A stretch of 35,356 nt of DNA from Pigoraptor vietnamica (taxonomy: Eukaryota; Opisthokonta; Filasterea). The notes under the pieces are model-generated. The model had not been told where the DNA came from. It worked only from the letters and a program-made list of their open reading frames with translations, and ran no database searches. The position numbers and the translations under genes are program-made. The stretch spans positions 1 to 35,356 of the forward strand of contig CALSCQ010002727.1 of assembly GCA_943704525.1 (NCBI GenBank). The letters are read 5' to 3'. Positions 4,352-34,100 of the stretch are shown here, in pieces. Each line of letters begins with the position of its first letter. Position 1 is the first letter of the stretch.

Positions 4352-4750
4352 GTGGCTCGTGTTCCACTCCTTCAACAAGTGGCTCGTGTTCCACACGTCA
4401 ACAGTGGCTCGTGTTCCACACGTCAACAGTGGCTCGTGTTCCACACGTCAACAGTGGCTCGTGTCCACACTCAACAGTGGCTCGTGTTCCACACCCTTCG
4501 CACTCGTCATCTTCCACGTTCTATTCGGCAACTTTCCCATCGCTCCATCGCCCGTCCTGTTGAAAAGGTGGCTCGTGTTCCACCCTCGCTCTAAGCAAAG
4601 GTAGTGGCTCGTGTTCCACACCGTCCGCCGGTGGCTCGTGTTCCACCCCGCCCTGTGGCTCGTGATCCACACGTCGTCGAGTGGCTCGTGTTCCACATGT
4701 CGCCGAGTGGCTCGTGACCACAGCGTGTCGCGTGGTGGCTCGTGTTCCAC
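4352..4750. repeat. Minisatellite-like array of 13 copies of a 16-bp core GTGGCTCGTGTTCCAC
   Basis: Cores lie at 4352, 4379, 4404, 4429, 4454, 4477, 4568, 4604, 4631, 4655, 4681, 4707 and 4735. Nine are identical to the core, two of them (4454 and 4707) are 15 bp, and one (4655) has a T-to-A change; the remainder match closely. Spacing is 23-27 bp in most of the array, with a 75-bp gap between copies 6 and 7. The core has GTGG/CCAC ends. The spacers of copies 2-5 (ACGTCAACA) are nearly identical, while later spacers diverge, so the core is conserved better than the spacers. Confidence 0.93.
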
Positions 4751-9979: not shown

Positions 9980-10688
9980 TCACACGCTGTCCCCGCTCTC
10001 AATAGCAAACCACGTGAAGCTGCGCGCGGGGAGCGACACGTCGAGCGAGATCGAATAGTCCCTCTCGAGGGCCACCTTCTGAGGAGCGGCGCCCTTTTCA
10101 GACACCACCGCGACGCTCGAAATCCCGGCGTAGTAGAGGGGAAGTGCGAGGCGCGCCTCCTGCGCCGTGTCGGTCGGGTTGTACGCGAACGCAAGCGCAC
10201 GGACGCCGTCGAGAGAGGCGTCTGCGTGCATCATGCAGTCAATGCCGCGCATGTCCGGACGCCGGACGTGGATAATATCCGCGTTGAGAATGTCGCGGTA
10301 CTGCTTGTAGAAGTCGACCCATCGCTTCACGACGGCGCGCGTGTCGTCAGAGTCGTAGAGACGCGTGCCACGGTAGCACGCAGCGACGCCCATGCCGAGA
10401 TACTGTGCAAGGGCCCACTCGTATTCGGAGATGTGCTGGGAGAGGGGTTCGAAGGTGGCCGCCGCGCCGCCCCCGTGATACTCGACGAGGGGGACGAACA
10501 TCCAGCCCTGGGATGGGATGCGCGCGTATGTGTCGTCGTAGATGCTTTGCCGGCTCACGGTCAGGTCTTCCCAGCGGGGAAGCGAGTACTGCGACGACAG
10601 GGTGTCGGTGGCGAGGCAGCGATTTGACGCAGCGAGAGTGTGCTAGCCAACACCAGCCTTTTCCGTTGCCACTGACTTCCAACACGCT

Positions 10689-10779
<91 letters not shown>

Positions 10780-13039
10780 CGCAGCACACGCACCTGATTT
10801 TCGTTGTAACCCATGCCCGTCTTGGACCCCCCCGCGAAGAAGTAGTCGTCCGGCTGATTGATGAAGACGCCCCTCTCGCGAAGGCGCGCGAACATCTCCG
10901 CTTGAAGCATCGTCTGCTGGTACACGCTGTCCGAGAGGCTCGAGTGGTGGGGACTGCGCACACGCAGTGAGCCAAGAGTCCTCTACGTCCCGACCGCAAA
11001 GAGCGAACCAGCGCAACACATGGGAGAGAACAAGCATCTCTCTTCTCTCCTCTACCCATTATCGGCTGTGCTCCTGTGTGTGAGGGCAGCGCGACAGAGG
11101 ATTTACTCACTGCGATGTGGATGCGCACTCGGTGCCGCCGTACGGTCCGTCGGTCTCCACCATCGAAAGCCCCGTTGCGTTGAGAAACCCAAAGACGTAG
11201 CCGTCGAGCTGTTCCCACCAAGCAGACGCAAGGCACGCGTCGCCGCCCGGCTTGCCTGTCGCCGGGTCTGCAGTGGAAATATGGGGGATATAAGCGCTGG
11301 AATACGTACACACAAACAGCGAGGCACGCGTGCTCATTACACCGACACGGGCAGGCTTTTAGGGACATTGTTGAATTCGCAGAATGCGCATGCGACGAAA
11401 GACTTTCAACTTGCACGCCACCAAACACACGTCCACGCATCGCCGCACACCCACCGATGACCTCCTTATCGTCGCCAACGCTCCTGTCAAGCACGATGAG
11501 GTCATACCCGCCGACCTCAATCCCCTTTGCGCGCGCGTAATCCACGTTCGCCTTGACCGAGGCGAAGTACGCCGCGTCCGTCGACTCCATGTTGAACGAC
11601 GTCCCGAACGAAAAGATGACCATCTCAAAGCCGACGTCCGCCAACTGATCAATCGCACTGCGGAAGCCGGCGTCAGAGGCGTCGGTGAGGTGGAAGAAGA
11701 CGGGGTTCTCGGTCGTCCACGGGGCGAGGAGCCGCGTCAGCTTGCGCCCAAAGAGACTCCAGCGCTCCGGGTCGCGCGAGTCGTGCACCACTTCGAGCAC
11801 GCGGTAGGAGACGAAGGCGTTTCCCCGCGAGGCGCTGAGGGGAACGCCGGGTCCGGACAGGTAGCTGCAGTTGAGGAGGGGCTCGCTGGCACCTGGCGCA
11901 TCGCCGACATCCGGGTCGTCAATCCACTGGATCTGCGGACGCAATGCGGGCGTAAGTACATGCTGCGCCCACTCATACGTACTGCACGCGCACACGCTAT
12001 GCCTGTTATATGCACTTACCGCCGTCGAGTGCGGGATGGACGCGACCACGGAGAGGAGGCTCGTGATGTCCACCTGTCGCGACGACGGCGGATAGGGCGC
12101 AAACGACAGCGGCGCGTAAGGCGGGTTCGTGGCGAGGAGCTCAATCGACACTGACGCCACAACGACGTCATCGTCCGCAGCAGCCCTCACAGCGCGCTTA
12201 TTCTCCGCAGGGGTGCGGTGGCCAAACGCACCGACGGCCTCCGCGTCGCAGTCGTCCGTCACGTTGGCGCCCACGCGGACGGCGACCCACTTTGCGAGGA
12301 AGGGGTGGCCGGCGTACATCTCGTAGAAGACGCACACGTTCACGAGGCGGTGCGCGGGTTCGGCGTCCGCAGGCGGCGCAAAGCGCACAATGAGCGTCAA
12401 TCCCTCGGGCGGCCACGAGCCCTTGCGCGGCGAGTGGCGCGTGCCGGGCGTCCACGTGACGGCGGCGGTGGGCGCGCGCGTGGTGTGTCCCACATACTGG
12501 AAGGCGGAGGCGTCGACTTGCAAATTGGCTGAGGAGGCGTTGTAGTATGCATCAGGGCCCGCCTGCTTGAGGGCGCCGACGGCATAGCGACGGCCGTCCT
12601 GCGAAGAGGACATGACACTCGGAGATCAGCGGTGTTCGGGTGAATGTAAAGGGAACATGAATGGTGGTGAAGCTCCAACAAACTCGCACTCACTCGCACA
12701 CATGCATACTGAACAACTATTATTGCGGCCACCCACAAGGACAATCTCGGCTTCGGGCCGGACGGCGCGCACGATGGACTCTTCCAGCTGGTGATTCACA
12801 AAGTCGACGGTTCCGAATGCGGGCGCAGTGGCGAACACGCGGGACACAAGCCCGTTCGTGAGCGCAATCTGGCCATCGGGACCGCTCTCGACGCGCACTC
12901 GCCACGGATGTCCCGTCCCCTCGTACGACGAAGGGGGCTTCGAGATGAGCCAGTCCTTCACCGGCGTGCGCGAGAGAGGCGCGGCGTGTGCGACGAGGCC
13001 ACACAGAAGCAGCAGCGTCGCAAGTGACGTGCGCGGCAT
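9980..13039 (-). CDS. Secreted alpha-galactosidase-like glycoside hydrolase (6 exons)
   Basis: Exons on the minus strand: 13039-12737, 12598-12020, 11932-11455, 11267-11111, 10953-10794 and 10588-9980; about 761 aa. An N-terminal signal peptide (residues 1-19, SLATLLLLCGLVAHA core) indicates secretion. A beta-sandwich-like N-terminal part carries IALTNGLVSRVF and VDFVNHQLEES. The second half looks like a (beta/alpha)8 barrel: GIEVGGYDL (residues 432-439), SMVETDGPYGG with Asp493 as candidate catalytic acid, INQPDDYFFAGGSKTGMGY, GWMFVPLVEYHGGG (Glu595), ACYRGTRLYDSD and HVRRPDMRGID. I recall this series from poorly characterised bacterial alpha-galactosidase-like proteins related to clan GH-D. 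Substrate and exact GH number cannot be read from the sequence. The 87-nt second intron is stop-free and in frame. Confidence 0.82.
10690..10777. repeat. (AC)n microsatellite in intron 5 of the hydrolase gene
   Basis: A pure 88-bp AC repeat. The gene is on the minus strand, so the transcript carries (GU)n, starting about 16 nt after the 5' splice site of intron 10793-10589. Confidence 0.97.
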
Positions 13040-13345: not shown

Positions 13346-13440
13346 CGTGTGCTCAACTCGAACTTTGAGATGAGAGCTGTTGTCCCCACACGCACGCACC
13401 CACAAGCAACCGAAACTTAAGCCATTATACAAACACACAA
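13040..13440. promoter_or_regulatory. Divergent promoter region between hydrolase and cupin genes
   Basis: This 401-bp gap lies between two start codons pointing away from each other, so it should hold both promoters. It contains ATTGG (inverted CCAAT) at 13262-13266, pyrimidine tracts near 13138-13160 and a (GT)n array at 13302-13343. No TATA box was recognised. Confidence 0.5.
13302..13343. repeat. (GT)n microsatellite in the divergent promoter
   Basis: A 42-bp GT array lies about 100 bp upstream of the cupin start codon. Such tracts can adopt Z-DNA and exclude nucleosomes; no effect is shown here. Confidence 0.95.
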
Positions 13441-14216
13441 ATGCTGCTCGCAACTGCCTCACTCGCGTGCCTCGCCCAGCGCCTGTGCCGTCGTTCTCTC
13501 TCCACCGGCGCGCAGTCTTCCAACAGCGGCACCGCATCGGGCCTTCTCCGCAAGTACGTGCGCGGAGAAAGCGCCGAGCAACTACGGATCGAAGGCGGCG
13601 AAATTACGCGCGTGTTACTCTCTGGCACCGACGCGGGTGGGCGACTGTCGCTTTACGAGAGCATCCTCCCGAAAGGCAACTCTGCGCCTTACCACTTCCA
13701 CGAAATCGATGTCGAGATTTTCTACGTTATTGACGGGGAGATTGAGTTTGGAGTCGACGGGGACGTCTTTGTGGCGAAGAAGGGCGATGCCGTGCTCGCG
13801 GGACCATTCGTCAAGCGGCGGTTCATTGCGGTGACGGACGCGCGCCTTCTCGTGATCAATTCCCCCTCTGGGCCTTCGGAAGGCCTCATGCGCGATATTG
13901 CCTCACTCGCGCCGGGACAGCATCCGCCGCCCGAGATGATTGAGAGGTGTGTTGTGTGTTTTGTCACTGTGCGATGGGATGTCGCGAGCGAACTATCAGG
14001 CCTTCATCCTGCGGTTTGATAGTGGGCTTGCACCCGCGAAGTTGCGTTTTGTGTGCATGAGTAGTGTATGTGCGTGTGGGAGAGCTCATATGAGCGCACG
14101 TGTCTTGTGTGTGCAATGTGCGTGTGGCTGCGCACATCATATGCACAGTCTGTCGTTGACTTTTTTCATTTTTCGACAGGTTTGAAAATGTGTACAAGAT
14201 ACACATCGTTCGCTGA
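13441..14216 (+). CDS. Mitochondrial cupin-domain protein (2 exons)
   Basis: Exons 13441-13946 and 14180-14216 encode about 180 aa. Exon 2 adds only RFENVYKIHIVR after an AG/G split codon, with a clear ATTTTTCGACAG acceptor. Residues 1-27 form a presequence-like segment (LAQRLCRRSLSTG). A single cupin barrel follows. Motif 1 is PYHFHEIDVE with His85, His87 and Glu92 as likely metal ligands, then FYVIDGEIEFGVDG. In motif 2 (GDAVLAGPFVKRRF, residues about 115-128) the usual ligand histidine is replaced by a basic residue. Cupins of this size range from dioxygenases and isomerases to non-catalytic binders, so the reaction is not assigned. Confidence 0.82.
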
Positions 14217-14652: not shown

Positions 14653-17600
14653 TTACTCGTGCTGGTCCCTGGGGGCCTCCTGGCTGGGACGGCGCTCGCC
14701 CGCATACCCAGGCGCCTCGTGGCTAGGGCGGCGGCTTATGTTGAAGCCCGGCAGCGACTTGAGCTCCTCCTGCAGTGGCGTCTCCGCGTGTTCCCAGCCT
14801 GGCACCGGACTGCGCCGCGTGGGCGAGGGAATCGGGCTGCGACGCGTCGGCGTGCGGGGACGGGGCTCATCGACCGCGTGCGGGACGACGTCGCCGAGCA
14901 GGGTGGGAGGGAGCGACTCGACCTCCGGGACGGCGAACGGGTGCGACGAGTGCGAGCCCTCGAGCTCCGCGTTGAGCGAGTGCGTCGAAGGGGTGGGCGA
15001 GGGCGTCTGCAGGGACTCGACGCAGCACTTCGGGATGCGTCCCCACTTCTGCGTCGCCGTGTTGAGGCCCATGTACCAGCTCGCGTTGGACGAGTCCGTC
15101 ACTTGCACAATGTCGCCAACGGACAGCGAGACCTCGTCAGGGAACTTGGGCGAGTAGCTCAGCTTGGCGATGGCCCGCGCGTACCGCGGCGAACTCTCGG
15201 CGATCGGCTGCTTGACGTTGAGCGGGTCGCTGCTAGGCAGAGACGTTGACAGCGGGGCGTCTTCGTTGGGGTCGACGGGCGGAAGCGGCACGAACCCTTG
15301 GCCGGCCGAGCTCGACATGACCGTGTTCATAGCGACAGGGGCCGTCTTGCCGGGCGTCCATGCGCTGACGGCGGGAGAGGGGGGCGCATCGGCCACTTTG
15401 GCCTTGTCGTCGGCGGTGGTCTCGGGCTGAATCGCCTCGACGCGCTTGGGAGCCCACGCCTTGTGCGAGCGCGCGTACCACACGTAGCCTCCAACGCAGA
15501 GTGCGACGAGAACGGCGCCGCCGATGGCGACACCCGCGATCATGGATGTGTTGCTGGACGAGCTCGGAGAAGGGGGCATAATGTTCGCGATGCTCGGAGT
15601 TGCGGCCGCCGTCGCACTCGAGGCAATGCTACTCGCAGCCGCGGACGTTGTTGTCGGAGCGTTCGAGGAAGCCACCGACGACGCGGAAGGCGGAGGCGAC
15701 GAAGACGCGGGCTGTTGCCCAACGACGGTCGTAGAGGCAATAGACGGGGTCGGCGTCGCGGACGCGGCGGCGCTACTTCTGGGGACGGGATACGTGACGG
15801 CGATCTCCGCAGAGACGACGGCGAACTGGCCGTTGCCAGTGCTGAAGCGCAGGCGGACGGTCACCTGCTGCGTCGTGTTCGCCACATTGAGGGTCACGTT
15901 GGTGAAGTTGGCGCGGCCGCCGGAGAAGTAGACGAGCGTCGTCCCGCCGAGAGAGAGCTGCGCGCCGGGCGCCGTCTCGTTGGCCATCGTGTCAATGGAC
16001 ACGGACGCATTCCACGGCGTCAGAATCCCGAGCTGGTTGACGAGCGCGCCCGAGCCGTCGCGAACCTCTAGCTGAAACATGCCCTGGAAGACGCCGTTCG
16101 CCACGACGCCCGTCGACGACGACGTGAGCGCCATCGACGAGGGAATCTGGATGACCGCTCCGGTGCCAGTGCCGCTGCCACTGCCGCTCCCGTCGTCGCT
16201 GCCCGACCCCGTCGTGTCCGGTGCGTTCTGCGCCACGGGTGGTGCGGCGAGCGTGACGCCGGCGCCGAGCACCTCGACGCCGAGCCCGGACGCAAGCTGG
16301 TTCGATTGCACGAGGGCTACGAACGACTCGGCCAGGCTGTTGAGCTGGTTCATCGCTTCCATCTGGGCGGCCGTGTTGTCCGGGAGCGTCGTCGTGCTGT
16401 TCGCCACGCCGCCCACGCCACTGGTCGACCCGTTGCCGCTGCCTGAACCCGAGCCGCCGTCGGTGCTTGTGCCGTTGTTGGTCGACCCGCCGGTCGCCGT
16501 GTCGTTGCCGGCATTGGGAACGTTGTCGACGATGTCGGCGGGTGGCGCCTCCGGGTTGGGCTGCGGCGCGGGCGTCTGCGGCATGACGATTGTGTCCGCG
16601 GGCGGGTCGGCGATCTGGATGACGACAGTGGTCGAGGGGGCGTCCCTGCGGCCGCGCGTTTCCGAGACGACGTCGACGACCTTGATCCTGTCCGGCGTCG
16701 TCCCGAGGAGCGCCGCGAGGTTCTTGATGAGATCCGACCCATAGAAGGCGTCCACGGACATGCCGAGCGTGAGACCGAGCTGCACGACGGGAGAGATGAC
16801 GACGTCGACGACGGCGCGTCCGCGCAGCGTCACGTAGAGGAGCTTGCTCTTGCGGTCAAAGTAGTTGGCACCGGCGCTGTGCGACACCGTCGGGATGTAC
16901 TGTGGCCCCTGCGGCACGGTGGCGCCGTTGGCGTTGTTGCCGGTCACGAAGGCGCTGTTCTGCGGCTCGATGAAGCGGCCGTCGCGGTATACGTCGATGC
17001 GCTGCGGGTTCGTGAACCAGTAGGCGAGCACGATGGCCTCATCGGTCTCGGCGTTCGGCAGGTGGAAGCGCGTGCGCGTCGGATTCGTGCCCGTCATGTA
17101 CATGGTGTAGTTGCGCCCGGCGGCGACGGTCGCGAAGAAAGTCGAGAGGCGCTTGAGGCACGTGTAGTTTTCGCACCAGCCGTGGTCCTGGGGTCCGTTG
17201 ATGAGGTCCATCGTCCCGTCCGCCGTGAGCGAAATGGGCGACAGGCGCCGCGTCTCCGTGTCGGCGTCGAGGCTCTCGATGACGAACATGCGGTGGGTGC
17301 CGCCGGCGCACTTGTACGCCTTCCACGCGGGCACCTTCTCGCACGACAGCCCCTCGCGCACGATGCCCTGCTTCGGCGCGACGTCGGCGACGGTGAGCGC
17401 CTTGCCGCCGGGTCCCTTGAGTGCCGCGGGAGGAATCTTCGTCTCGTCAAATCGGAGTTCGGCGATCGGAATGACAGTGCCGCCGCGCGCCCCAAAGAAG
17501 GAGCCGTCCGCGTCGACGGTGATCACGTGCTTGGGCCCGTCGCAGTCCATGTCCACGCAGTCGAATTGCGTGCGCCACGCGGGATTCGGTTCGTAGTAGT

Positions 17601-20600
17601 ACAGCTTGCTCTCGTCCTCCACCGACACCCACTCAACCCCGGAGAAGTAGTGAGGATGCGTCCCGTCTGGGGCGAGCGGGTTCGAGGCTACGGCGTAGTT
17701 GCGCCGTCCGCACTCGTCGAGCCCGAAGCCGGCTAGCGTGATGCCCTTCGCGATGAACTTGCCGTAGAGCGACGGGTACGACATGACTTCGTCCCACATG
17801 TGAGGAGGGCCGCCGACCTTGTCCATGTTGAAAGCGCCCATGTGAATGCCGACGCGGAGTGTGTCGTCGCCGAGGGACAGCACGGACATGTTCGCGGGCC
17901 TGGGCTCGCTGCACGCGCCTTCTTCGGAGATGCCGACGACGAGTGCGTTCGTGACCGTCGTCGTCTTGTCGAGCGCAAAGTGGGCGATCACGTTGGGGCC
18001 GTACACGGCGAGGAAGACGGCCTTGTGCGCGTCGGCGACGACAAAGTCGTGCAGCTCCAGCGAGGACTCGAGCAGCGCGTACACGCCGTAGTCCCAACTC
18101 TTGAACACGCGGAAGTTGCCAAACGTCGTGCACGCGGGGACGCCGTCGATCTTGAACCCGAAGGAAACGCTGTGCGCCACGTTGTCGTCGAGGTAAGGGC
18201 GACCGTCCGGCGCCGTCACGTTGCACGTGTCGCCTCGCACGCGGAAGCCATTGCGCTCGGACCCTCCCGCCGCATTGCCGCGGAGAATGCTGAGCGGACC
18301 GCGCACGTTGAAGCCCGACGACTCGTCGTTGTAACCGGCCTCGGTCAGGTGGTTGAAGGCGACCTCCACGCGGAGAGCGAGGTTTCCGACCACCGACGCG
18401 AGTCGCGACGAGACGTAGTAGGCGTCGCCGACGGTGCGGTACGCCACGTTGTTGGAGATTTCCAGACCGTCCGACGCGTGTGCGCCGACAGCCGTGTTGA
18501 AGTTGAAGTTGAAGGAGCAGCGGCGCACGAACGATGGCCCCGCGTTGCCGACGTCCTTGAAAACCAGGGCGTATCGGGGGTCCAGGTACGACGGCCACCC
18601 GCGCTGTCCGCACTCGCGGAACTCGACGCCGTCGGCGCGGAAGCGGCCCGTGAACACCGCGGGCGTGGCGCCGGCGTCGGGGTTCGCGTAAGACCCGACG
18701 AGCACGCGCCCGCCAAACTCGGCCGCGTTGTCGATGCCGCGAACGACAATGTTGCGCGAGAGGACGCCGACCTCTGCCGTGTACTCGACGGAGCGGCTGC
18801 CGTACGTCGCCTTGGTCGCTGCGTGGCGGAACGAGAGGGGCTGTGCGAACGAGAGGATGCGGCCGTTGGGCGACACTGCGGCGAGGACGCGCGTCTCGGA
18901 TTCGAAGACGCTGTACCCGGTGGGCGCGATCACAATCTCGTCGCCGACCGCCCAGGGAACGCTCTTCTCCAGCGTGATGCTCGTCGCGCCCGCCACCGCC
19001 GTCGCGCTGAGGCGCGTCCACGTGACGTTCGGGGGCGCGCCGACCATTTCGACGTCGCCAAACACGGCGAGGACTTTGCTGCCGAGCGGAAGGCGCGTCG
19101 TCGCGGTCATCTCGGGCGTCGTGCGGCTGCCGGTGAGCGAGATGGTTGCGCGGCTGCGGAACGGCGCCGTGCTATTGCCGATGCCGAGGCGGCCATCCCG
19201 GACGATGATGTACGTCGCCGTCAGCTCCCGGTTGCCGCCGTCGACGAACTCGAGCGTGCCCTTGATGTTCAGCAGATGAAGCTTGGCCGTGTTGCAATCG
19301 AGGAGGACGACCTCGTTGCTCTCGATCGTGACGTCGTCGCCGTCCTCCGGCACGCGGCCACTCGCCCACCCGTCGGCGTCGCACCAGCTGCGGACGGCCT
19401 TGGGCACGTGCGTCTGGTTGACGGGAGGAAGGACGCACCCGGTCTTGGGGCACTTGATCGCGTGGAAGTTGATCTCCTGCGTGAAGCTGCCGTTGCCGGC
19501 GACGACGTACGTGTGGCGCATCGTCGCGTTGTCGAAGAAGTACGCTGTGTTGGGGTCGCCGGCGGCCACGGGGCGACCGAGATCGAGTGACTTGCCGTTG
19601 ATTTCAAAGTGATCGTGCTTGACGAGGTAATCCGATGCAACGCCGATCCAGTCCTGCTGGTCGAGAAGGTACGCGTTGAGGAGATAGTCGGTGACGTCGA
19701 CGCGGTCCTTCGCCTCGACGTCGTATGCGATCGCGACCGTGTCGTTGCCGGGGACGAGCGCCATGTAGCCATTCGGATGCGTCGTCCGCCTCAGGCGCCA
19801 CGGCACGCGGGAGACGCCGAACCGGCTCGTGAGCGTCGCGTTGTGGCCGAGCAGGCTGTCGGGGACGACGGCGTTCCATCCGATCTTGCGAAATTCGACC
19901 TTGTCCGTACACACCATGCCGGGGTAGAGTCCGGACGAGAAGCTGGGCGAGTCTGTGCACGCGGAGGGGTCGTAGAGATTGCTGCGGGGAACGGCCCAGC
20001 CGCGCGCGCCCGTGAGCGAGCCGTCCAAGTCGCGCCACATCAGCTCGTGCTCCCACTGAAATGCGCCGACGTGCGGGCAGTTGATCATGGCGATGCCCTT
20101 GAAGCGCGTCTCGCTGCCCCCGTCGTAGTCGCGGCAGTGCGCGCACCCGCGCAGCATCGATTGCTTGTCGCCGTCAAAGTTGACGAAGGTCACGTTCTCC
20201 ACCGTCATGTAGTGCGAGTTTGGCGTGACGATGCCCGCATGCGAGCCCGTGTAGTTGGCCACGTTGATCAGCCCGCTGCGACCGACGATGAGGCAGTTTG
20301 CGACGAGCGGACCGCCCCACGTGCCCTCGACCGCCGTGAGCTGTACGTTGACGTTGTAGCTGTCGAGAACCACCGAGTCCAGCACTTGCGCGTGTCCGAC
20401 CTTTGCGAGCTCGATGCCCTTGCCGTTCGCGTACGCCGTCGTGCGCACCAGCTGGGTCGTCGCGTAGGCGCCCTTGCCGCACTCGTCGACGCGCGAGATC
20501 CACTTCTCCCACGAGCGCACGCCAAACTCGTAGTTCGAGTGCGCCACGTTGTCGCGGAACGTGCCGAGCGGCGAGTAGATCGGGCACACCGCGTCCGTCG

Positions 20601-23600
20601 CCGACGGTCCCGTCGGGTGCTCGAGCGTGTTGAACCAGAAGCCCGCGCTGTCGGAGCCCGCGGCGTGATTGCCGATGAAGTGGTTGCGCGCGTTGGTGAT
20701 CCAGAACGTCGCCGGCAGCTGGTCCGTGTTGAGGAGGGACGCGGCCCCGCGCGTCGAAATGCCGAGGTTATAGCGGATCATGTTCCCCGTCTCGATGCCG
20801 TCCTCGAGAAAGTACGTGTGGCCCAACACGTCGTACGCCACATTGCGCTCCACGAGCAGCTGGTGCACGCCGTGCATAGTCACGGCACGGTTGAACGTCT
20901 TGTGAATGGCGCAGCCCCGGATGTACGAGCCCGCCGACGTCCCCGGCATGTGGAAGTGGAGAGGGTAGCGGCCGAGACGGAACGCCTGGCCCACGTGACG
21001 CGCCTCGAGGTACTCGATGCGGGCGCCCTGGTGCATGTGCACGAACAGCTGCGCGCCGAACGTGTCGCCAGTCGGCGTCGACGGGTCCAGCGCGCCCTGG
21101 AAAACCACGTTGCGCGTGAGGAGGCCGACCTCGGCGCGCAGCTCGGCCGAGCGCGAGCCGTACGTCACCGTCTCGCCGAGGTGCTCGTGCGCGAGCCGCG
21201 ACGTGAACGTGAGCGTGCGGTTGTTGTCGGTGATGGACGCGATCGTCATGACTTCTGCCTCGGTCGTGTCGAAGAACGACGCCGCAATGACAACGCGGTC
21301 GCCGACGTGCCAATCGTTCACGGGCTCGCGCAGGCGGATCGAAGTCGCGTTGACGTGCGCAGTCTCGGCGAGGACCGTCCACGTGTGCTCGATGGGGCGG
21401 CCGTGGATTTCGAGGGTGCAGTTGCGGCACGCGAGGACCTTGCTTCCGTACACTGGCAGCTCCGTGTCCTTCGTGTGGCCGTAGAGTGTGATGGTCGCGC
21501 GCTGCAAGAACGGCTCGGCCTCCGTGCCAATTTCAAAGTATCCACCGTTGATAAGGACGTACTTCGCGTTGAGCTCAACGCCGTCCACGCGATCGAACAC
21601 GAGCGAACCCTCCACGACGAGTGCGTCAAGAACGGGCGTGGCTTCGTCCAGCAGCACCGTCTGCCCCTTCTTCACGTAGGCAATGTCCCCGGCGACCGGC
21701 TTGTTGCAGTCCTTGCCCCATGTCGCGCACGAAGACCAGCGGTCGACGTAATCAAACGTGGCGTCCGTGGCAAAGGCGTCGCCCCACTCGGGCGCGTTCA
21801 CGCGGATCTGCGCCTTGCGCGACGTTGCGTGCGAGCCGGTCACGCACACAATCGCCGTGGCGTTGACGGAGGATATCTTACACTCGCTGCCGCTGATCGT
21901 GACGCCGCTCGAGGGGTGGAAGTTGGACCCCGTAATCGTCAAGACAGTCCCTCCCATGGTGCCGCCGCGGCGGGGCGAGTGGCCTGTGACAATCGCCGTC
22001 CACGCAGCCCGGAGCGTGAACTTGGAGGACCACGAAGCCTCGGCGCCGTTGACGTGCGCGACGACAGAGCACTGCGCGTCGGCGTTGGGAGCCGCCTGCC
22101 CGGGATGCCGCGAGAGCACGCATTCAACGCGGCCGAACGACGCGGACGTGGGAATGCACGCCGCGCCGCACACGTTGATCGCGTTCGCGCTCGAGTTGCC
22201 CTGACGCCCGTCAAAGCCGTCGCCGTCGATCACAAGCGCGACGCCGCCTCCAAAGCCGCTCTGCGTCGTGCTGACGCTGTCGACGAGCAGGCTGTGCGTG
22301 AAGTGCACGCTGCTGAGTGCGTTGCCGAGTCCGTCGACGCTGACGCGCACGCTGTGCGAACCCGCAATGTTGGCGCCGAGCGTGCATGTGATGCTGTCCT
22401 CAGCGGCGGTGACGACCTCGCACTTGACGTCGCCGACGGTGACCTTGACGCTCGCCGTGTCGTTGGCAAACGCGCTCCCGAAGACCGCCAGCTGCTGACC
22501 CGCGCGGCCCGACGACGGCTGCACAAAGTTGACGCGAGGAGTCGCGTCGTCCGCGTAGCTGAACCGTTGGGGAGAGAGAGACGATGCGTCGCCGACGGTC
22601 ACAATGACCATGGCGTCCGCGACAGGCCCAGAGTGTGCAGACGTCTCGCACTGGAGCGTCGTCGCGGTCACATCGCCAACGACCGCACACTTGCTTCCGC
22701 CGACGACGACGGCATTTTCGCTGGCGACCGTGGAGAAACCGTGGCCGTTGATCGTGAGAAGGGTGCCGCCCGCAATGCTGCCGGACGTGGGCGCGACCGT
22801 CGACGCCTGGAGGGAGAACGAGAGCGGCTGCGCAGTCGAGTTGGCATCGCCCTTTCCGGCGACGTTGACGCGCACGTGACGGCGACCGGCCTTGGCAGCG
22901 GGCGCGTTGCAAGTGAGGGAAGAGCCGTCCGACGACACGACCACGCACGGCACGCCTTCGAAATCGACGGCGTTTTCGGCTGCGACCGACGAGAATCCGC
23001 TGCCGGTGATCGTCACGGCGAACGAAGGCCCGTTGCCCTCTCGAGGCGAGACGCTGTCGACCGTCGGCGTGAGTGCGCTGCTCGCAGTGTACGCGCAGGA
23101 ATCCGCAGCGCACGCAGAGCTGACGCTGACGTCAACGAGGGAGCCCTCGGCTGTGCGCTCGACACCGCCAACGCGCGCGCCGACGACCTCGTAATAGGGT
23201 GCGACAAATCCGACGCCATTGATGGCGGCAGCTCGCGAGTGGGCGACGACGAAGACGGGCTGCGCTGCCGTGCGACCGTACGAATAATGCGACGCGACAG
23301 CAGTGTCGGTGGGACCGCGGTAGAGCGCAACCTCATCGATCACTCCCGAAAACTTTGTGGCGCTGCCAATCGGAGCCGGCAGGCCACCGAAGACAAGGGC
23401 CTGGGGCGCGCATGCGACGGGCGTCGAGGGGGTCGAACCGACGAGTTCGCCGTTGACGAAGAACCGCTGCGTGCCGTCGGACACGACGCCAACCATGTGG
23501 TACCACTGGTCGTGCTCCACGGCGGGCCCTTCCGTCACCGCCCAGCGGCCGGGGAGCGGGGACACCGAGGCGGGTGCGGGCGTGACGACAGCGTTGGTGG

Positions 23601-26600
23601 CGTCCACCTTGGCCTCGGGCGTGGGGACCGCTGTCGGGTGCGGGCGCCCCTGCGTGAAGACGTTCTCTCCGGCGACCATGCGCTCGTGTACGACGTGCTC
23701 CTGGCCGCTCGTCAGCTCGTCAAAGGCCTGCGCGTCGCCCGCAAACAGGTTCGCGACGTTGACCTCGGCGTGCCACGCGTGCCCTTCCGCTCGACGCGAC
23801 TCGCTCGCACCGGCGCCGGTCCAAAACTCGACGCGGCCAGAGGGGTTGATGAGGAACGCAGCACCACTGCCGGCATCCGCGCCAAGCGCAGAGGCGATGA
23901 GCGTGTACTGCGTCGGGTTCACAGCCGGCTGGACCCACATTTCGAACGAATATCCCGAGGACCGCTCGCCGAAGATCGCTGCGGACGTCCACGCATCGAC
24001 CGGCACCGTCTCCGTGTTCGACCCGAACTGTCCGCCGACACCGACGACGCCCTTGAGGCGCACGAGGTCCTCGTCGTCGCCCACCGATTCGTCGAAGGTG
24101 CGGGTGAACACGGCGCCGTCGGCCTTGACAGCCGCGCTGTAGCCGCCCTTAGCGTCCGAAGCCGTTGTCGTGCACTCGATTTCGGACGACGAACTGTGCT
24201 GCACGATGCACTCTGACGCGCCAACGAACACGCGTGCGCCCGCAGAACCGAAGCCGGTGCCAGTCATGCGCAGCGTGCGGGCGCCCATCAGCGAACCGGC
24301 GTGTGCATCGAGCGAAGTGACGACGGGACGGACCTCCACATCGCCGCCAAACGCCGCCGAATCCGCGGCGCCCACGTCCGAGAAGACGAGCTTGACGCGG
24401 TGCACGCCTGCGGGCGTGGCGCCGATGACGCATCGGATGGCGTTCGAGCCGGCCGAAGACAGCGACGTGCACGCAACGCCGCCGATCGAAACGGCCGCAT
24501 GCCCGACATCCCCAAAGTGAAGTCCCGAAATCGTGACGGAGTCGCCCGCGGTGCAGTGGAAAGGCACCACGGAGGTGATGAGGGGCGTCGTCGACGCCGA
24601 CCGTGTGAAGGTGCCGCTGAACGACGCGGATGTGCTACCGATCGACACGGAGACGAGGCCGACAGCCGGAGAGCGCTCACGCACGACGACCACGCCACGC
24701 ATGCCGATCTCGCCAAAGTCCGCGGACACGTAATGGTACGTGCCCGGCGCCGTGAAACGAACCGAGAAGAGGCCGCTACCGCTGCGCTCGCTGCGGAATC
24801 CGACGCCGTTATACGAAAGTGCGTCCTGCGACGCGACCTGCTCGACCGAGTGCAGCGTTCCAGTGAGCGACGAGCCCGTCCACGACCACTCGACCGTGTC
24901 GCCAACCTCGACCTCTACGCGTGCGGGGGACCACGCGTAGCCAGCGCCGTACTTCGGGTGGACGCCGCCGTTCGTCACGCGCACAGTGCGTGCCGCAGGA
25001 GCCGTCGTGCACGCAATCGAATCGTACGAAATGTCCGAGATCTCGCAAGGCGCGCCGGCCACAGTGACGGACGGGTTGAGCGAGGCGTTGACGGCCGTGA
25101 AGCCGGCGCCCGTCAGCGTAATGCGCTGTCCACCGAGCGCCGACCCGGCCGTTGCAGAGACCGTGGACACGACGAGCTGGTACTCAAACGACGCTGCGGT
25201 TGCCGACAGGCCCATTCCATGAATGCCCGCGACGACGGCGTGAGTGCCGACGGCTCCATGAGACGTGACGCACTCGACAAAGCCTGCGCCCGTCCGGCGA
25301 ACGTCGCACGCGAAGGCGCCAACCTTGACCGTGACGACGTCGTTGGCTTGGAAGTCGCCGTGGAGAGTCAGCACGGTGCCACCGCCGACACTTCCGTGCG
25401 TCGGGCTCACGCTCGACACGTGCCTCGTCGCGCTCTGAAGGAAGGAGAGGGCACCGGCAACGGCAGTCTGTCCGCCCACAGCGACGGAGACTGCACGCGA
25501 AGACACCTCGCCGGCAGCCGACCGGGGCGTGAGGCACTTGATCGTCGTGTACGAGCTCTCGACAACGATGCACTCGCCGACGCTCTCGACAGTCACGGCG
25601 TTGTTCGCGATGGAGGGCGAAAATCCGTCGCCGGCTATGGTGAGCATCAGGCCACCCTCAACGCTCGACGCGGCGTGGGACACAGAAGTTGCGGAGAGAC
25701 TGTAGACGAACGTCGCCGTGGACTTGGCGCGGCCCATTCCGGGAACAATGACCACGACAGCGTTAGAACCCGCCGACAAGCGCGGGACCGTGCACCAAAC
25801 GGCGCCAGCAGCGGCGACCGCAACGTCACGGCACGGCTCTCCGCCAACGTTCACGAGAGGAACCGCGCCAACAGGGAGGCCCTGGACGGTCATGGTGATG
25901 CGCGCGCCCTCGCCGCCCGACTGCGGGGCGACGGACGCGACGAAGGCGGCGTCGGATTCGCGGAACTCAAAGCCGCAGCCGCTCTCGGCGCTGCACACGG
26001 CGAGGAACTCGGAGTTGTCCGGGAGCACGCGCGTGACGGTCACCTGGGGAGTCGCGTGAATCGTGCGCAGCATGTCCGCCTGGATCGGCGCGAGGAAGAG
26101 GCCGCCCAGCCGCATCTCATCGACGATGACCCTGGCGTCCGTGCCGGTCAGCGCGGAGGCATTCGCGACGAGCATCGGCTGGCGACCGTTGAGCGAGTCG
26201 AAGGTGATGTGCCATGCGCGGCCGTCGCAGCCGCGCGGTTCGAGCGTCACGGTGGACTTGCCGATGAGGGGGAAGAGCGCGTCTGCGACGTCGTCTCCGT
26301 CGGCATCGTGCGCGATGGGGCGCGTCGTGGCCGAGCCGAAAGAGAGGGTGAAGTTGCCGCCGATGGGGTGTGAGGCGTTCCGCGCCCGCTCGACGGCAAC
26401 GCCGAGGTCGCTCGAGATGGCCTTCATGACGGGATATTCGACGGGGCACTCGGTGGACGCGAGGCGCACGACGAACGAGACGTCGTCGCCGACGATATCC
26501 TTCGTGACGAGGGCGCCGCTGATGGCGACCGGTCCTACGTCAGCGCGCGACGTCTGCTTCACGTCACGCGGCGTGGCCGATATGGAGAACTCGTCGATCC

Positions 26601-29024
26601 ACAGCTGCCCCCAGGACGAGCCGTCTTCGCGAGGCGGGTACCACACGACGCTGTCGATGTTGTGGCTGGGGTCCTCCGGGAACGCGGCGTTGAGCATCTC
26701 GTCCACGTTGATGCACTTGTAGTGCCAGTGGTCGTCTATCTGCGTCGGCGAATCGTCCGTGAACCACGCTCCGATGCGGGGGTACGTGTACGTCGTGTTG
26801 GGGCCGTACGTGTCCGTGAGCGGAATAGAGTACCAGCCGCGCGCCTTCTCGCGAATGAGCATGTTGGCCCTTCCCTGCGACATGCGGTACGCCGTGCAGA
26901 TGTACGGGTAGCTGCGCGTGTTGAACCCTTGGCTCGTCTGTCCGTCCTCGAGGCCCCGGTCCATCTCAAAGTCGACGGCGTAGGGAACAGGCATCGTCAT
27001 CGAGGCCATCCCGCAGTAAGAGACGCCCGGGTGCGGTATGATGACCGGGTTGCCGTTGCCGTTACGCGGTGTCCACAGGTCGCTCGAGAAGTATCCGTGC
27101 TCGAAGTCGTCCAGGTCGTAGAGGTCGTCTCCGTCGGTCACGACGCAGCCCATGCCGAGAATGCCGTGCAGCGCATCCGCGATCTCCTGTGGGGTGGACC
27201 TTGCGCTCAGCGGCACCGTCTGCTTGCCCCCGAGTTCGATCACGAACGTGCCGTTGGAGTGCGCGCCGCCGGCAATCGTAATCCGCTGCGTGTCGTAGTT
27301 GCCGTTGACGATCGCCGCCACGAGCTGCTTCTCCTGCACTGCGCTGCCAGTCTCCTTCTCTGAATACGGCGAGTGGTCGGCGAGGGCGCCGACTGCGCAC
27401 GTGTCGCGCCCATAGCCCTCCTTGCAGATCAACTCGAGGTACACGGGCTCGCCGGCGACGAGCGGGACGGGCGACGTCGAGCGCTGGCGAGCCCCGTAGT
27501 CGAACCAGTGGTTTTCCAGGACCCACTCGTCGAATGTGGCGACGGCCACTGCGTCTGAGCCATCGAGCTTGCTGCCGATGCGCACTTCGGAGTTGTCGTC
27601 GCTCGCGAGGAAGAACGTGTAGTTGTCGGTCACCGGCGGGACGAACGCGGCGACGATGCGCGTGCCGTAAAGATCGAACTTGTCGACGAAGCCGGAGGCC
27701 TCGCCCGTGAGGACGATCGACGCGTCGGGGCTGTTGGGAAACTTGGGGGCGGCGCGGAGGTCCACAATCCTGTCGCCGCCAATGTCGAAGAAGAGTTCCA
27801 TGCGGGCGCCGCGGTTACCTGCCGGTTTGCGCGAAGTGATTGAGCAACAATGTGTGCGACTGCGACGCAGCGAAGCATGTGCTGCGTTGAGAGGCCCTCG
27901 TACAAACCTGTGAACGCCGTCGCGCTGCTCTGGAATCGCCCGGCGATCTTGCACGTGAGGGAGGTATCGGAAAGCGTTGCCTGTTCGACCTCGCAAGGCA
28001 CGCCGCCAACGCTGACCTTCAGGCCGGCCGCGCTCGTTCCAAAGCCGCTGCCGGCGATGGTAATCGTGCTGCCACCCTCGACGCTCCCGTGCGAAGGAGA
28101 CACGGACGTGATATCTGCAGTGCAACGCAAGAGGGCGCTTCGGTGAGTGTGCCGTGGGGCCGTCATTGTGTCGGAGAACATTGGGTCGTGCGATGCTGCG
28201 CTCACCTGGCACCACTTGGTACATGTATAGCTTGAGGTTGGAGGAGACCTTGACCGCGCTCAGCTCGGCGTACGAATCGCCGCGCGCAGGCATCGAGGCG
28301 AGTGCGTTGTAGTATCCGACCTCCGTCTCCGCGGGGACGCACTGCACGGTGGAGCGGTACGAGTCGTAGCTGAAAGTGGTGTCGTAATAGGCGCGCGTGG
28401 CGGGGTCGCGCATGTCGCACACGTCGTCGCCGACGTAGATGCGCTCAAATAGGGGGAGATCGTCCGTTGTCGTCGTGAAGAAACGGCCTTCGATGGCGAC
28501 GCGGGTGCCGGCGGGTCCTCCCGAGGGCGTGATACGCGATATCGTGGGCGTCTCGTTCTCGATGAAGGAGAACTGGCAGTAGCCGGCGCACTCGGACTTC
28601 GCCGTGCTGTCGACAATCACTGTTACGGGAACGGGAGAGGGAGTCGTCGCGTGACGGGGATTCATGGGTGTCGTGATGCACACGAGCGAGGTCGTCGTGC
28701 TATAGAACCAGACGTTCTTGCACGGGACGTCACCAAACATGATGACGTTCCCGCCGGCGTAGATGTCCGAGCTGAACCCGGAGCCACGGATGGTCACGCG
28801 CGTGCCGCCGGACACGCTGCCGTAGTTCGGCTCAACCGACGTAATCACTGGGTGGGCCGAGGGGTCAGTATGCATGGGGCTGTGCGGCATTGACTGACTG
28901 GGTCAGTTGGGTCGGTGCCGGCTTAGCTTCCCAATAGCTTGTACTTACCAACGCCGTCTGCGTGCGCAGAGGACAAGCAGAGAGCAAGGGCCAGTGCCCA
29001 CGCAAGGACCTTGAGGGGCTGCAT
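14653..29024 (-). CDS. PKHD1L1-like: Fibrocystin-L (PKHD1L1)-like giant membrane protein with LamG-like insert and cytoplasmic SH3 domain (4 exons)
   Basis: Exons on the minus strand: 29024-28949 (signal peptide ending AHA, residues 1-22), 28847-28206, 28114-27908 and 27818-14653; about 4,696 aa. Approximate order: IPT/TIG 1-3 (26-305), PA14 (312-455), a beta-sandwich-like region (546-726), IPT 4-7 (about 935-1260), a cupredoxin-like domain (1261-1360), IPT 8-9 (from 1385), a LamG/ConA-like domain (1586-1823), IPT 10-14 (1895-2335), G8-1 (about 2335-2545), beta-helix, G8-2 (3115-3335), a second beta-helix, a Ser/Thr/Ala-rich stalk, a transmembrane helix (4398-4422), SH3 (4521-4576) and a Pro/Arg/Ser-rich tail. 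Fourteen IPT domains with PA14 after the third, followed by two G8/beta-helix units, is the known fibrocystin-L plan. The human protein (about 4,243 aa) is a ciliary/stereociliary surface coat protein with a short tail. Introns occur only in the first 1.2 kb. Confidence 0.94.
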
Positions 29025-30539: not shown

Positions 30540-31150
30540 GCTGATACCTGTGTGGATCACTCGCCGTCGTTACTGAAGCTGTGATGTGGCCGCAGAATGG
30601 GTGTTTGGTTGCACTCACCTTTCATCAAACGGCCCATTTTTTTTTCTTGTTTAACGACGCCTTGAAGCGAAACCTGTTTGTTATTATGTTCGCGGTCTCG
30701 GTGGACGTCTGCCGCTGAGGCTGCCCGTCAGTAAACGGCGTCGGGCACTCGGCGGACGGTCACTGCCGTGACTGAACGCCGTGCACGATGGCGTTGCAAT
30801 TGTTGCGCGGCGTGTGTTGCCGACGCTCTAGCGCGGCCTTTATATATCATGAGCTCTCCTGTCGTGCGAAGGCACTTCCTTCCTTCGCCCGCCGTTCAGA
30901 CGTCACAACAGCCGCTGTGCCGGCGAAGGCTGGTTTCCCTTCGCCAGCCACACAGAAGAACCCAATTTATTTTTAGTATCACGTTGGGAGCAATCCGCAT
31001 GTTTCTACTTATGTTGCATTTTCAATTCGCTATAAGTCGATTAGGTACCATGTTCGAAAAAAAAAGCCACAGAGTTTAAACGTTTTTCGCGCGACACCCT
31101 CACGCAGCGCACACACGCACACACACTTTGCGGGACCTGCGAATGGGGCC
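30540..31150. promoter_or_regulatory. Divergent promoter region with TATA-like sequence and two hairpins
   Basis: This 611-bp gap separates the divergent start codons at 30539 (-) and 31151 (+). It has a TTTATATAT stretch at 30839-30847 and two inverted repeats of the same arm sequence: GCGAAGG/CCTTCGC at 30866-30888 and GGCGAAGG/CCTTCGCC at 30922-30945. A short CA-rich tract lies near 31108-31130, just before the receptor start. Confidence 0.45.
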
Positions 31151-34100
31151 ATGGCGGCGCGCGTCTCTGTGCCATGTGCGCGCACGCTGCTCCTGCAGTC
31201 CGTGCTCTTGCTGACGGCCGCGGTGTGTCTGAGCAGTGCGTCCCCGCCCTCGTTCGTCGGCCTCGTGAAGGCAGCCGTCTTCAGAAATGCGTCCTTCGAC
31301 GCGCAAGCCTCCCCTCGCGTCGACATTGCGTACGACGAGCCCTCACTCACGATCACAGCCACAGTGTCGAATCCGTCAGCGGGCATGCTGTGGGCCAACG
31401 CGTCCACTGACGGCACTCTTCCCGTAGACATTGTGTTCCCCGGTAACGGCCGACCGGCGCGACTCGTATTCGCTGGCGGTGGCGTCGTCGTGGACTGCCG
31501 CGGCCTTTCTCCCTCGCCGCTTGTTGTCGTGAGCGGTGAGATGGCAATCTCCGACGTCTCTTTCCGCAATTGTAGCAGCCCGAGGACTTCGCCGCCGGCC
31601 GTGCTGTTTCGCGCGACGGGCAGCGCCGTATTGAACGCGACCGATGCCGGCTTTTCGAACATGCTCGAGTTGCGCGCCTTTGAAATTGTTGGGCCCGCGC
31701 GTGCCCACCTGACCCGCGTGACGGCGACGGACATGAGCGCAGCGTCGGCGGTTTCCTCCTGCTCCAACGACAACTCTAAAGACTGCGGCGGCGGTCTCTT
31801 GCTGAGGGCGGTTGCCGGTGGCCAGGCCATCGTCTCTGGCACCATCGTGGAGCGTTTAAGCTGCGGCAATTGCAGCGGCGGCGTCTTCGTTGCGGCGGAT
31901 TCCGCCAATCTGCGTGTGGGAGGGCTGCGGGCGACCGACACGAGGGCGTACAGTGGCGGCATCGCGTACGTGAACGGCGCATCGCTGACGATGACCGATG
32001 TGCGCATCGACAGCTCGTTTGTTTCCAAGCACGGCGGCGTGGCCTTTGGCGTAAAGACGGCGAGCGTCAACATTCTCGACGCGACGATCACGAACACGAA
32101 ATCGTTTGAGCGCGGCGGCGTCGCGTGCGTGCAGGACGCCGCCTCGTTGGTAATGACGCGCATCAACGCCACGCACACGGTTGGCGGCACGGGTGGCTTG
32201 TTTGTTGCGATTGGCACCAGAGGCATTTCCGATTTGCCGACGGTGTTGGTCGAGGACGTCCGCTCCGAGGACTGTTGGGCGACGTCGGCAGGCGGCATTG
32301 CGTGGATGAATTGGGGCTCGCGCGTAACAGTTCGGCGTGCGTCTTTTAACGGGACGTGGTCGGGGTCGTACGGCGGCGGCTTTGCTGCGTTCGACTTCAC
32401 GTACTTGCTCGCAGAGGACTTGACCGTGCACAATGTCTCCACCGTGACGACCGGCGGTTTCATGTACACCCAGGACCAGGCAACGGTAGAAATGCAGCGA
32501 CTGCGCGTGTCCATGGCGAGAGCTCAATTCGCGGCCGTCGTTTCAACCCTAAGCGAAGCGAAGGTGGCGATGAGCGACGTTGTTGTCGACGACGTGCAGG
32601 CGGATGTTGGCGGGTTCGCGGGGGTGGAAGTGCAATCCGAGCTGGTGATAGATGCGCTGATCGTCTCCCGTGCCAAATCGGCCTTCGGCGCCGTTTTCTG
32701 CGTCTTGAACACTGCCACTTTGACGGCCACGAACGTCAACGCCAGCATTCTCTCTTCGTCGGACTCAGGTGCCTTTTTGTATGCGGACACTGCGTCAACG
32801 ACATCCATAACAAACGCCACCATCTTGAACAGCACGGCCGCGACCGGCGGCGTCCTCTACACGGAGCTCGGCGTGGACGACGACGGTAACGCGGGTTCCG
32901 TCGTCCTCAGTGGCATCGTGGCTCGCAACGTGTCTGCCGATCACTTTGGAGGCTTTGCCTCTTTCGCCGGCACGGTCGCCCTCCCAGTGATACTCGACTC
33001 CGTGTTCGTGGACGGGGCGTCTGCGGATGCCGGCGGTGTCTTCGCCTGTTCGAATGCGGCGATTCTCCAGGCGTCGAACGTGCACGCAACGGGCGGGAGC
33101 GCGGCGAGCTTTGGCGGTTTCCTGTACGCGCGCGGCGCGTCAGTCGCGATGGTGACATCCGCCATTCTCGCCGACATGTATTCGCGTAACGATGGCGGCG
33201 CGATCGCAGCGCAGGACACGGCACAGGTGTCTGTGACGGATCTCGAAGTGACGAGCGCGGTGGCAGACGACACGGGTGGCTTTGCGTACGCGGGCAATCG
33301 CGCGGTCATCTCGGCCGTTGGCGCGCGCATCCTCGGCGCGCGTGCGACGGACGGCGGTGCCGTCGCTGCATCCACTTCCGCATCCATGAGCCTTTCGGGG
33401 AGCTCTATTGCGGGCGCGCGGGCAGACCGGCGCGGCGGCTGCGTCTGCGCGGTCAACGAAGCAAAAGTGCACTTGGACTCCGTCGACGTGGTCGATGCGT
33501 TTGCGCTGGAGAGCGGCGGCGTCGCGTCTGTCTCGCAGTCCGCGTCTGTTACTGTGTCCGGGGGGACGTTCAGCGACGTCGGGGCTTCCATGTCGGGCGG
33601 TGCATTCTCTGCCGATCGCAACTCGCAGCTCACAGTGTCCTCGCTCGTCGTTCGTAACTCGTCGGCGTTCGAGGCAAACGGCGGCGCCTTTTTTCTCGGC
33701 AATGCGGCGAGGGCCGTCCTCTCGCACGTCACCATCGAGGGCGCGTCCGCCGCCGACTCGGGCGGTTGCATGTATGTCGGGGGAACGGCGCGGCTGGAAA
33801 CGTGGTGGGGGACGTTTCGCAATTGCACCGCGGGCGCGCTCTCCAGGACGGGTGGCGCCGGCGGAGTGGCGTTTGTCGAGCGCAACGCCACGCTGTCGCT
33901 GCGCACTCTACAGAACGTGTCGCGCGCAACGGCGGTGCTGGGACCGGCGGTGTATTCGGAGTCGCCGTTTGACAACGCGACTCGTGCCATGCTGGTGGCA
34001 ACGGACCTTCGCACGCCGGCGGACCTGCTGAGTGTGCTGCCGGGCTTCCAGCCTGGGCGAGAGTTTGCGAGCGCGCCTGTGGAACTCGAACCGCGCCTAC

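What the first reader, a model, noticed from the sequence alone, without database searches (positions are those of the whole stretch)
14653..15475. SH3 domain in the cytoplasmic tail of a fibrocystin-L-like protein
After the transmembrane helix (codons at about 15550-15475) the frame encodes AKLSYSPKFPDEVSLSVGD, then ASWYMGL and WGRIPKCCVES, the ALYDY, GD, W and G-x-P-x-x-x-VE landmarks of an SH3 domain. Vertebrate fibrocystin-L has only a short tail, as I recall. An SH3 would connect this huge surface coat protein to proline-rich or phosphotyrosine-pathway partners. This may be a lineage-specific adhesion-signalling receptor.
Basis: partly seen in the sequence, partly recalled or inferred. 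Interest (0 to 1): 0.72.

Follow-up and report, generated by a model that had tools for sequence, protein, structure and literature searches.

The report
SH3 tail on giant fibrocystin-L-like protein
A giant cell-surface protein related to the fibrocystin-L coat protein of animal hair cells carries, in what is probably a single-celled relative of animals, an intracellular SH3 domain that the vertebrate protein lacks, which suggests a way for a surface coat to be wired to the cell interior.

Summary
The predicted minus-strand gene (four exons, 29024-14653, 4,696 residues) encodes a signal peptide, 13 TIG/IPT stretches, a weak PA14 match, a LamG-like domain, two G8 plus beta-helix modules, a Ser/Thr/Pro stalk, a transmembrane segment and a 273-residue tail with an SH3 domain (Pfam SH3_1 29.7 bits, cut-off 22.9), in one open frame with most of the ectodomain. 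A colinear paralogue (58% identical) keeps TM and SH3; the SH3 is 77% identical (dN/dS 0.22) and a second tail block 84%. A 25-sequence model is a confident SH3 barrel. Five other G8/beta-helix contigs in the genome have no SH3 match; two TSP1-repeat proteins seem to have TM-SH3 tails too. Src-like and Grb2-like genes point to a unicellular holozoan; the species is unidentified. Against the simple reading: both paralogues lack two of five canonical SH3 groove aromatics, the tails have no conserved tyrosine outside the SH3 region, and no ligand is known. I file it as a new architectural variant of a known family, most likely a surface-coat or adhesion protein docked to a cytoplasmic scaffold.

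The parts
28949..29024 (-). predicted exon 1: start codon and signal peptide (MQPLKVLAWALALALCLSSAHADG)
   Evidence: GT-AG intron 28948-28848 restores the frame into exon 2; the paralogue has a like signal-peptide exon (by eye); signal peptide judged by eye
28206..28847 (-). predicted exon 2: TIG/IPT domain(s)
   Evidence: TIG stretch 28564-28851 (its last 4 bases lie before the predicted exon); gene model
27908..28114 (-). predicted exon 3: TIG/IPT domain
   Evidence: TIG stretch 27936-28112 in another frame; introns 28205-28115 and 27907-27819
14653..27818 (-). predicted exon 4 (13,166 bases): rest of the ectodomain, TM, SH3 tail and stop codon
   Evidence: open frame; aligned to the paralogue over 4,237 codon pairs
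27433..27699 (-). PA14-like region
   Evidence: Pfam PA14 21.4 bits, below its cut-off of 24
21748..25938 (-). TIG/IPT domains in exon 4
   Evidence: 11 TIG stretches over the cut-off here, 13 on this contig in all
23314..23541 (-). LamG-like (Laminin_G_3) domain between the IPT stretches
   Evidence: Pfam 67.2 bits, cut-off 27.6
21367..21723 (-). G8 domain 1
   Evidence: 111.9 bits
20521..21063 (-). CEMIP/TMEM2-type beta-helix 1
   Evidence: 196.9 bits
19006..19368 (-). G8 domain 2
   Evidence: 111.4 bits
18238..18645 (-). CEMIP-type beta-helix 2
   Evidence: 45.0 bits
15481..15543 (-). transmembrane segment MIAGVAIGGAVLVALCVGGYV
   Evidence: highest Kyte-Doolittle window of the frame, 2.19; a TM-like segment at the same place in the paralogue
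15031..15171 (-). SH3 domain (Pfam match)
   Evidence: model pLDDT 90.8; PDB fold matches
14842..14940 (-). conserved tail block PFAVPEVE...DEPRPRTPTR with one PxxPxR motif
   Evidence: 84% identical over 32 aligned residues, dN/dS 0.10; motif number no higher than in shuffled tails

Best explanation
It is a giant type I membrane protein of the fibrocystin-L (PKHD1L1) kind whose cytoplasmic tail carries an SH3 domain. The ectodomain (IPT array, PA14-like, LamG-like, two G8/beta-helix modules on a Ser/Thr/Pro stalk) projects from the cell as a coat or adhesive filament. The SH3, about 100 residues inside the membrane, binds a cytoplasmic protein and so anchors the coat to, or signals to, the cortical scaffold (actin, endocytic or Src/Grb2-type proteins). 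Shown: domain order, one frame, SH3 profile match and fold model, and constraint on the SH3 and on a second tail block between two paralogues. Inferred: membrane topology, surface location, that the SH3 binds a partner in trans, and which partner.
For: Pfam architecture. TM and SH3 in the same open frame. Colinear paralogue with the same tail. Constraint: SH3 77% identity, dN/dS 0.22 (95% 0.09-0.49); tail block 84%, 0.10 (0.02-0.27); rest of the tail 47%, 0.43 (0.26-0.65). Confident SH3 barrel, 227 PDB matches at E<=0.001. RT-loop acids, groove Trp, Pro and one groove Tyr kept. Src-like and Grb2-like genes and 27 SH2 stretches in the genome.
Against: Two of five canonical groove aromatics are missing in both paralogues (LYWPC and RYWPC). 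SH3 identity is not exceptional within this protein: 322 of 4,177 windows of 61 residues are as conserved, and its dN/dS interval overlaps those of the rest of the tail and of the whole alignment. The 25-sequence model was built with SH3 sequences as its alignment, so it is not independent; the two-sequence model of the whole tail was poor (pLDDT 48.6). A second hydrophobic window (1.78, residue 4030) leaves the single-TM topology unproved. No expression, localisation or binding data.
Confidence: 0.62

Rival explanations
1. The SH3 acts in cis: it folds back on, or pairs two copies through, the conserved PRTPTR (PxxPxR) motif in the same tail, as a switch or dimer contact rather than a dock for other proteins.
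For: PRTPTR and its surrounding block are conserved in both paralogues, about 50 residues after the SH3.
Against: One PxxPxR per tail is what shuffled tails give (mean 0.59 and 0.50); the whole-tail model is too low in confidence to show docking; the groove is atypical.
Confidence: 0.15
2. The SH3 no longer binds peptides: a folded, structurally kept but functionally inert or purely spacing domain.
For: Loss of two of five canonical groove aromatics in both copies.
Against: dN/dS 0.22; the runs VGDIVQVTDS and NASWYMGLNT are identical in both copies; W, P, one Y and RT-loop acids kept.
Confidence: 0.13
3. The SH3 segment belongs to a separate gene, or the join is an assembly or splicing artefact.
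For: No transcript data were available.
Against: One open stretch of 13,166 bases in the predicted last exon; the same join at the same place on another contig, 58% identical.
Confidence: 0.03

Closest known systems
PKHD1L1 / fibrocystin-L (vertebrates)
   Same: IPT array (13 in the 4,249-residue protein of PMC6707252, passage; 13 TIG stretches on this contig), one TM, similar size (4,696 residues predicted here); G8 and beta-helix modules in PKHD1L1 are recalled, its TMEM2-like region is in PMC11043200 (passage)
   Different: vertebrate tail is 8-9 residues; here 273 residues with an SH3; a LamG-like match is present here
Fibrocystin/polyductin (PKHD1)
   Same: related ectodomain and a long cytoplasmic tail (192 residues, PMC13424714 passages)
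   Different: its tail is described as unique among vertebrate proteins, with ciliary, mitochondrial and nuclear targeting; the term SH3 does not occur in that paper's main text
TMEM2 / CEMIP
   Same: G8 plus CEMIP beta-helix; five further contigs with this module in the same genome. Human TMEM2's intracellular part has a proline run proposed as an SH3-binding site (PMC10276149, passages): the mirror image of a tail that carries the SH3 itself
   Different: no IPT array (recalled); no SH3 in the tail
Grb2, OSTF1, SORBS1, CIN85, spectrin SH3 domains
   Same: SH3 fold and sequence
   Different: those are cytosolic proteins (recalled); this SH3 hangs from a transmembrane protein and lacks two groove aromatics
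TM-SH3 proteins such as yeast Fus1 and Sho1 (recalled; a Sho1 paper is in the listing)
   Same: membrane protein with a cytoplasmic SH3
   Different: small unrelated ectodomains (recalled); homology of the SH3s was not tested

Membership tests
Fibrocystin-L (PKHD1L1) family | N-terminal array of IPT/TIG domains | tested here: met
   13 TIG stretches on this contig over the cut-off; 414.6 bits in the ORF
Fibrocystin-L (PKHD1L1) family | PA14 domain | tested here: inconclusive
   21.4 bits against a cut-off of 24
Fibrocystin-L (PKHD1L1) family | two G8 domains each followed by a right-handed beta-helix related to TMEM2 | tested here: met
Fibrocystin-L (PKHD1L1) family | signal peptide and one C-terminal transmembrane helix | tested here: inconclusive
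   hydropathy supports a TM at 4454-4474, with a weaker window at 4030; signal peptide in predicted exon 1 by eye; no dedicated predictor was run
Fibrocystin-L (PKHD1L1) family | very short cytoplasmic tail (vertebrate fibrocystin-L; not a family-wide rule, fibrocystin has 192 residues) | tested here: not met
   273 residues with SH3 against 8-9
SH3 domain | profile match over the curated cut-off | tested here: met
SH3 domain | SH3 beta-barrel | tested here: met
   pLDDT 90.8, best PDB matches are SH3 domains; the alignment used was of SH3s
SH3 domain | five canonical groove residues (Src Y90, Y92, W118, P133, Y136; numbering recalled) | tested here: not met
   3 of 5 in both paralogues; of 52 own-genome SH3s 34 have 5, 11 have 4 and 7 have 3
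SH3 domain | binds proline-rich peptide | not testable with these tools
   needs a binding assay

The most novel reading that the evidence does not exclude
In this probable unicellular holozoan, a TM-SH3 tail is a reusable plug-in: one SH3 lineage was joined to two unrelated ectodomains, fibrocystin-L-like coat proteins and ADAMTS-like TSP1 proteins, giving a class of SH3-docking surface proteins that tie matrix and coat to the cortex alongside Src and Grb2 before animals arose.
Probability: 0.2. Interest if true: 0.68.

Novelty: new variant of a known kind. Interest (0 to 1): 0.46.

Why it matters
How the fibrocystin-L coat is linked to the cell interior is, as far as I know, unclear in animals, where the tail is 8-9 residues. 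A relative with a conserved SH3 tail in a species with Src-like and Grb2-like genes gives a concrete intracellular handle: its ligand can be fished out, and it can be asked whether the animal protein lost a tail or this lineage gained one. It would also add to the adhesion-type receptors with signalling modules in single-celled relatives of animals (recalled).

Tried and rejected
Separate gene, splicing or assembly artefact for the SH3: rejected on the paralogue and the single long frame.

Whole-tail structure from two sequences: low confidence, not used.

Single origin of the TM-SH3 tails: with all kept columns the SH3s of the four TM-SH3 proteins form one clade (98/89, 98% of 200 bootstrap trees, 0 of 500 shuffles as low). 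With the distal-loop columns left out the clade is gone (2 changes, 0% of bootstrap trees), though the four are still clustered (1 of 500 shuffles as low). In both runs the bootstrap had not settled. So the grouping rests largely on the N-x-x-T-x-x-x-G loop and is only a lead; an SH3 without a TM found (C1063) also has that pattern.

Organism: not identified. The ribosomal RNA search RF01960 was unanswered all 11 times. Chromosphaera was considered from its 34.6 Mb genome, but its L75 of 187 scaffolds (PMC5560861, passages) seems too few for 1,395 contigs in 32.5 Mb; not settled. Holozoan is inferred from the Src-like and Grb2-like genes, recognised by eye.

In print: two searches asked for SH3 together with fibrocystin-L, PKHD1L1 or G8 (10 papers, all listed; 167 papers, 12 listed). 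Of the ten I saw passages of three (PMC7852580, PMC10276149, PMC10731465) and only the listing of the others; none of what I saw reports an SH3 in a fibrocystin-L protein. Searches used other word sets; listings only, except passages of PMC13424714, PMC11043200, PMC6707252, PMC5560861 and PMC6040629 and the abstract of PMC5876402 (a paper listed). The library is open-licence PMC only, so absence is weakly supported.

Full report
What was checked. The minus strand of the window is open from 28902 to 14653 (4,749 codons). Pfam finds TIG, CEMIP beta-helix, G8, Laminin_G_3 and SH3_1 over their cut-offs (also Beta-sand_ComC_2nd, at residues 1086-1132), and PA14 below its cut-off. Scans of the window's own genome (G000, 32.5 Mb, 1,395 contigs) place 13 TIG, 2 G8 and 2 CEMIP beta-helix stretches on this contig. 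This is the domain set of fibrocystin-L.

Gene model. Predicted exon 1 (29024-28949) encodes a signal peptide; three GT-AG introns of 101, 91 and 89 bases join exons 2 (28847-28206) and 3 (28114-27908) to a last exon of 13,166 bases (27818-14653), giving 4,696 residues without an internal stop. No transcripts were on hand. The paralogue has a comparable signal-peptide exon (by eye). Third-position GC is 0.863 in the first 4,300 codons and 0.874 in the last 230, so the tail looks like coding sequence of the same gene.

The tail. The best hydrophobic window of the frame is residues 4454-4474 (15543-15481); a weaker one lies at 4030. The SH3 match is residues 4578-4624 (15171-15031). A model of the 65-residue piece on an alignment of 25 own-genome SH3s (itself included) has mean pLDDT 90.8 and five strands; Foldseek gives 227 PDB matches at E<=0.001, and the 50 rows shown are SH3 domains or chains that I know or read to bear one, FUT8 among them. 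The alignment was made of SH3s, so the model tests compatibility rather than discovering the fold; the two-sequence model of the 273-residue tail was poor (48.6).

Paralogue. Contig C351 (23964..10960, minus; 4,334 codons) is colinear and 58% identical over 4,237 aligned codons, with stalk, TM and SH3 in the same order. SH3: 77% identity, dN 0.13, dS 0.61, ratio 0.22 (95% 0.09-0.49). Block 4655-4687: 84%, ratio 0.10 (0.02-0.27; 491 of 500 resamplings usable). Rest of the tail: 47%, 0.43 (0.26-0.65). All aligned codons: 0.37 (0.35-0.41). The SH3 is under constraint, but not unusually so for this protein: 322 of 4,177 windows of 61 residues are at least as conserved.

Other members. Beyond the two giants, CEMIP or G8 stretches lie on five contigs (C316, C837, C650, C481, C147). 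None of the 81 SH3 matches in the genome lies on these contigs. Open frames on C837 and C650 end after a TM-like segment in short tails, and the frame that continues C316 ends about 16 residues after its best hydrophobic window (its letters were not printed); C481 and C147 were not resolved.

Groove. In an alignment of 52 own-genome SH3s (those of at least 42 residues among 69 examined; 17 shorter ones dropped), 34 have all five canonical groove residues, 11 have four and 7 have three; the window (LYWPC) and C351 (RYWPC) are among the seven (Src numbering recalled). They keep one Tyr, the Trp and the Pro and lack the Y90 and Y136 equivalents. Ordinary PxxP binding can therefore not be assumed. 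Each tail holds one PxxPxR motif (PRTPTR), about the number in shuffled tails (0.59 and 0.50), no [RK]xxPxxP, and no conserved tyrosine outside the SH3 region (tail Y98 at its edge, Y107 and Y134 are shared; Y257 is not).

Is a TM-SH3 tail unusual here? Of 81 SH3 stretches in the genome, 69 could be read with upstream sequence; 12 could not. A TM-like segment within 130 residues upstream in the same open frame, with hydropathy above 2, occurs in 4 of 69: the window, C351, C869 and C798. Four further rows pass the script's 1.6 threshold (two on C734, two on C807; at most 1.96) and were set aside by eye as Cys-rich or weak. One search, which allowed other frames within 1,500 bases, flagged eight more of the 69, several of them translated simple repeats; because of introns, a TM in another exon cannot be excluded for them, so 4 is a lower bound. 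Pieces near the C798 tail give a reprolysin-type HExxH match (26.5 bits, just under its 27-bit cut-off) and an ADAMTS-type TSP1 match (30.5 bits, cut-off 23.8); a C869 piece gives a TSP1 match of 20.3 bits, under the cut-off. In both, the TM-SH3 frame is separated from these pieces by presumed introns, so that they are one gene is inferred. The tree of SH3s groups the four, but this depends on the distal loop.

Setting. The genome has 27 SH2 stretches, some with stops inside. L007 shows an MGCVGSKEK start, SH3, SH2 and tyrosine-kinase motifs as in Src; L004 shows SH3-SH2-SH3 as in Grb2 (names by eye). This points to a unicellular holozoan, but the species was not identified.

Mechanism. Shown: architecture, join, fold model, constraint. 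Inferred: the ectodomain is a coat or adhesive filament by analogy with PKHD1L1, a stereocilia coat protein (PMC6707252, title and passages); the SH3 docks it to a cytoplasmic protein. In a distant flagellate, Cafeteria burkhardae, G8 and IPT (filed under cell adhesion) and Fibrocystin-L (filed under signal transduction) appear in a table of enriched functions; the text ties cell adhesion and signalling to the stationary phase, not to exponential feeding growth (PMC7852580, passages). That fits a surface role but not specifically prey contact, and says nothing of SH3. In human TMEM2 a proline run in the intracellular part has been proposed as an SH3-binding site (PMC10276149, passages), so a link between this ectodomain class and SH3 proteins has been suggested from the other side.

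Novelty. Putative orthologues of the fibrocystin ectodomain are reported across eukaryotes including green algae (PMC13424714, passage). What I saw in the searches listed under Tried and rejected reports no SH3 in such a protein; most of those papers were seen as listings only. I rate it a new variant of a known kind.

Noticed in passing
window 30977-34402 (+): Open frame of 1,141 codons with a signal-peptide-like start and many GG-containing repeats like a pectin-lyase-type surface protein (by eye); no Pfam match at E<=0.1.
   Followed up: partly
window 13369-14019 (+): Cupin_2 protein (49.2 bits), convergent with the 3' end of the giant gene.
   Followed up: partly
window 10643-12625 (-): 660-codon open frame; its first 403 residues have no Pfam match at E<=0.1; part of the rest is TG-repeat intron-like sequence.
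   Followed up: partly
L058 (C798:6000-11400) and L043 (C869:11900-14200): TSP1-repeat loci with a TM-SH3 frame, C798 also with a reprolysin-like HExxH piece; the C869 SH3 is followed by a long proline-rich tail.
   Followed up: partly
L007 and L004: Src-like (SH3-SH2-kinase with MGCVGSKEK start) and Grb2-like (SH3-SH2-SH3) genes in the same genome (by eye).
   Followed up: partly
many loci, e.g. L058, L033: Introns and spacers are rich in TG/AC dinucleotide runs that translate to Cys-Val or Thr-His stretches and can mimic hydrophobic segments.
   Followed up: no
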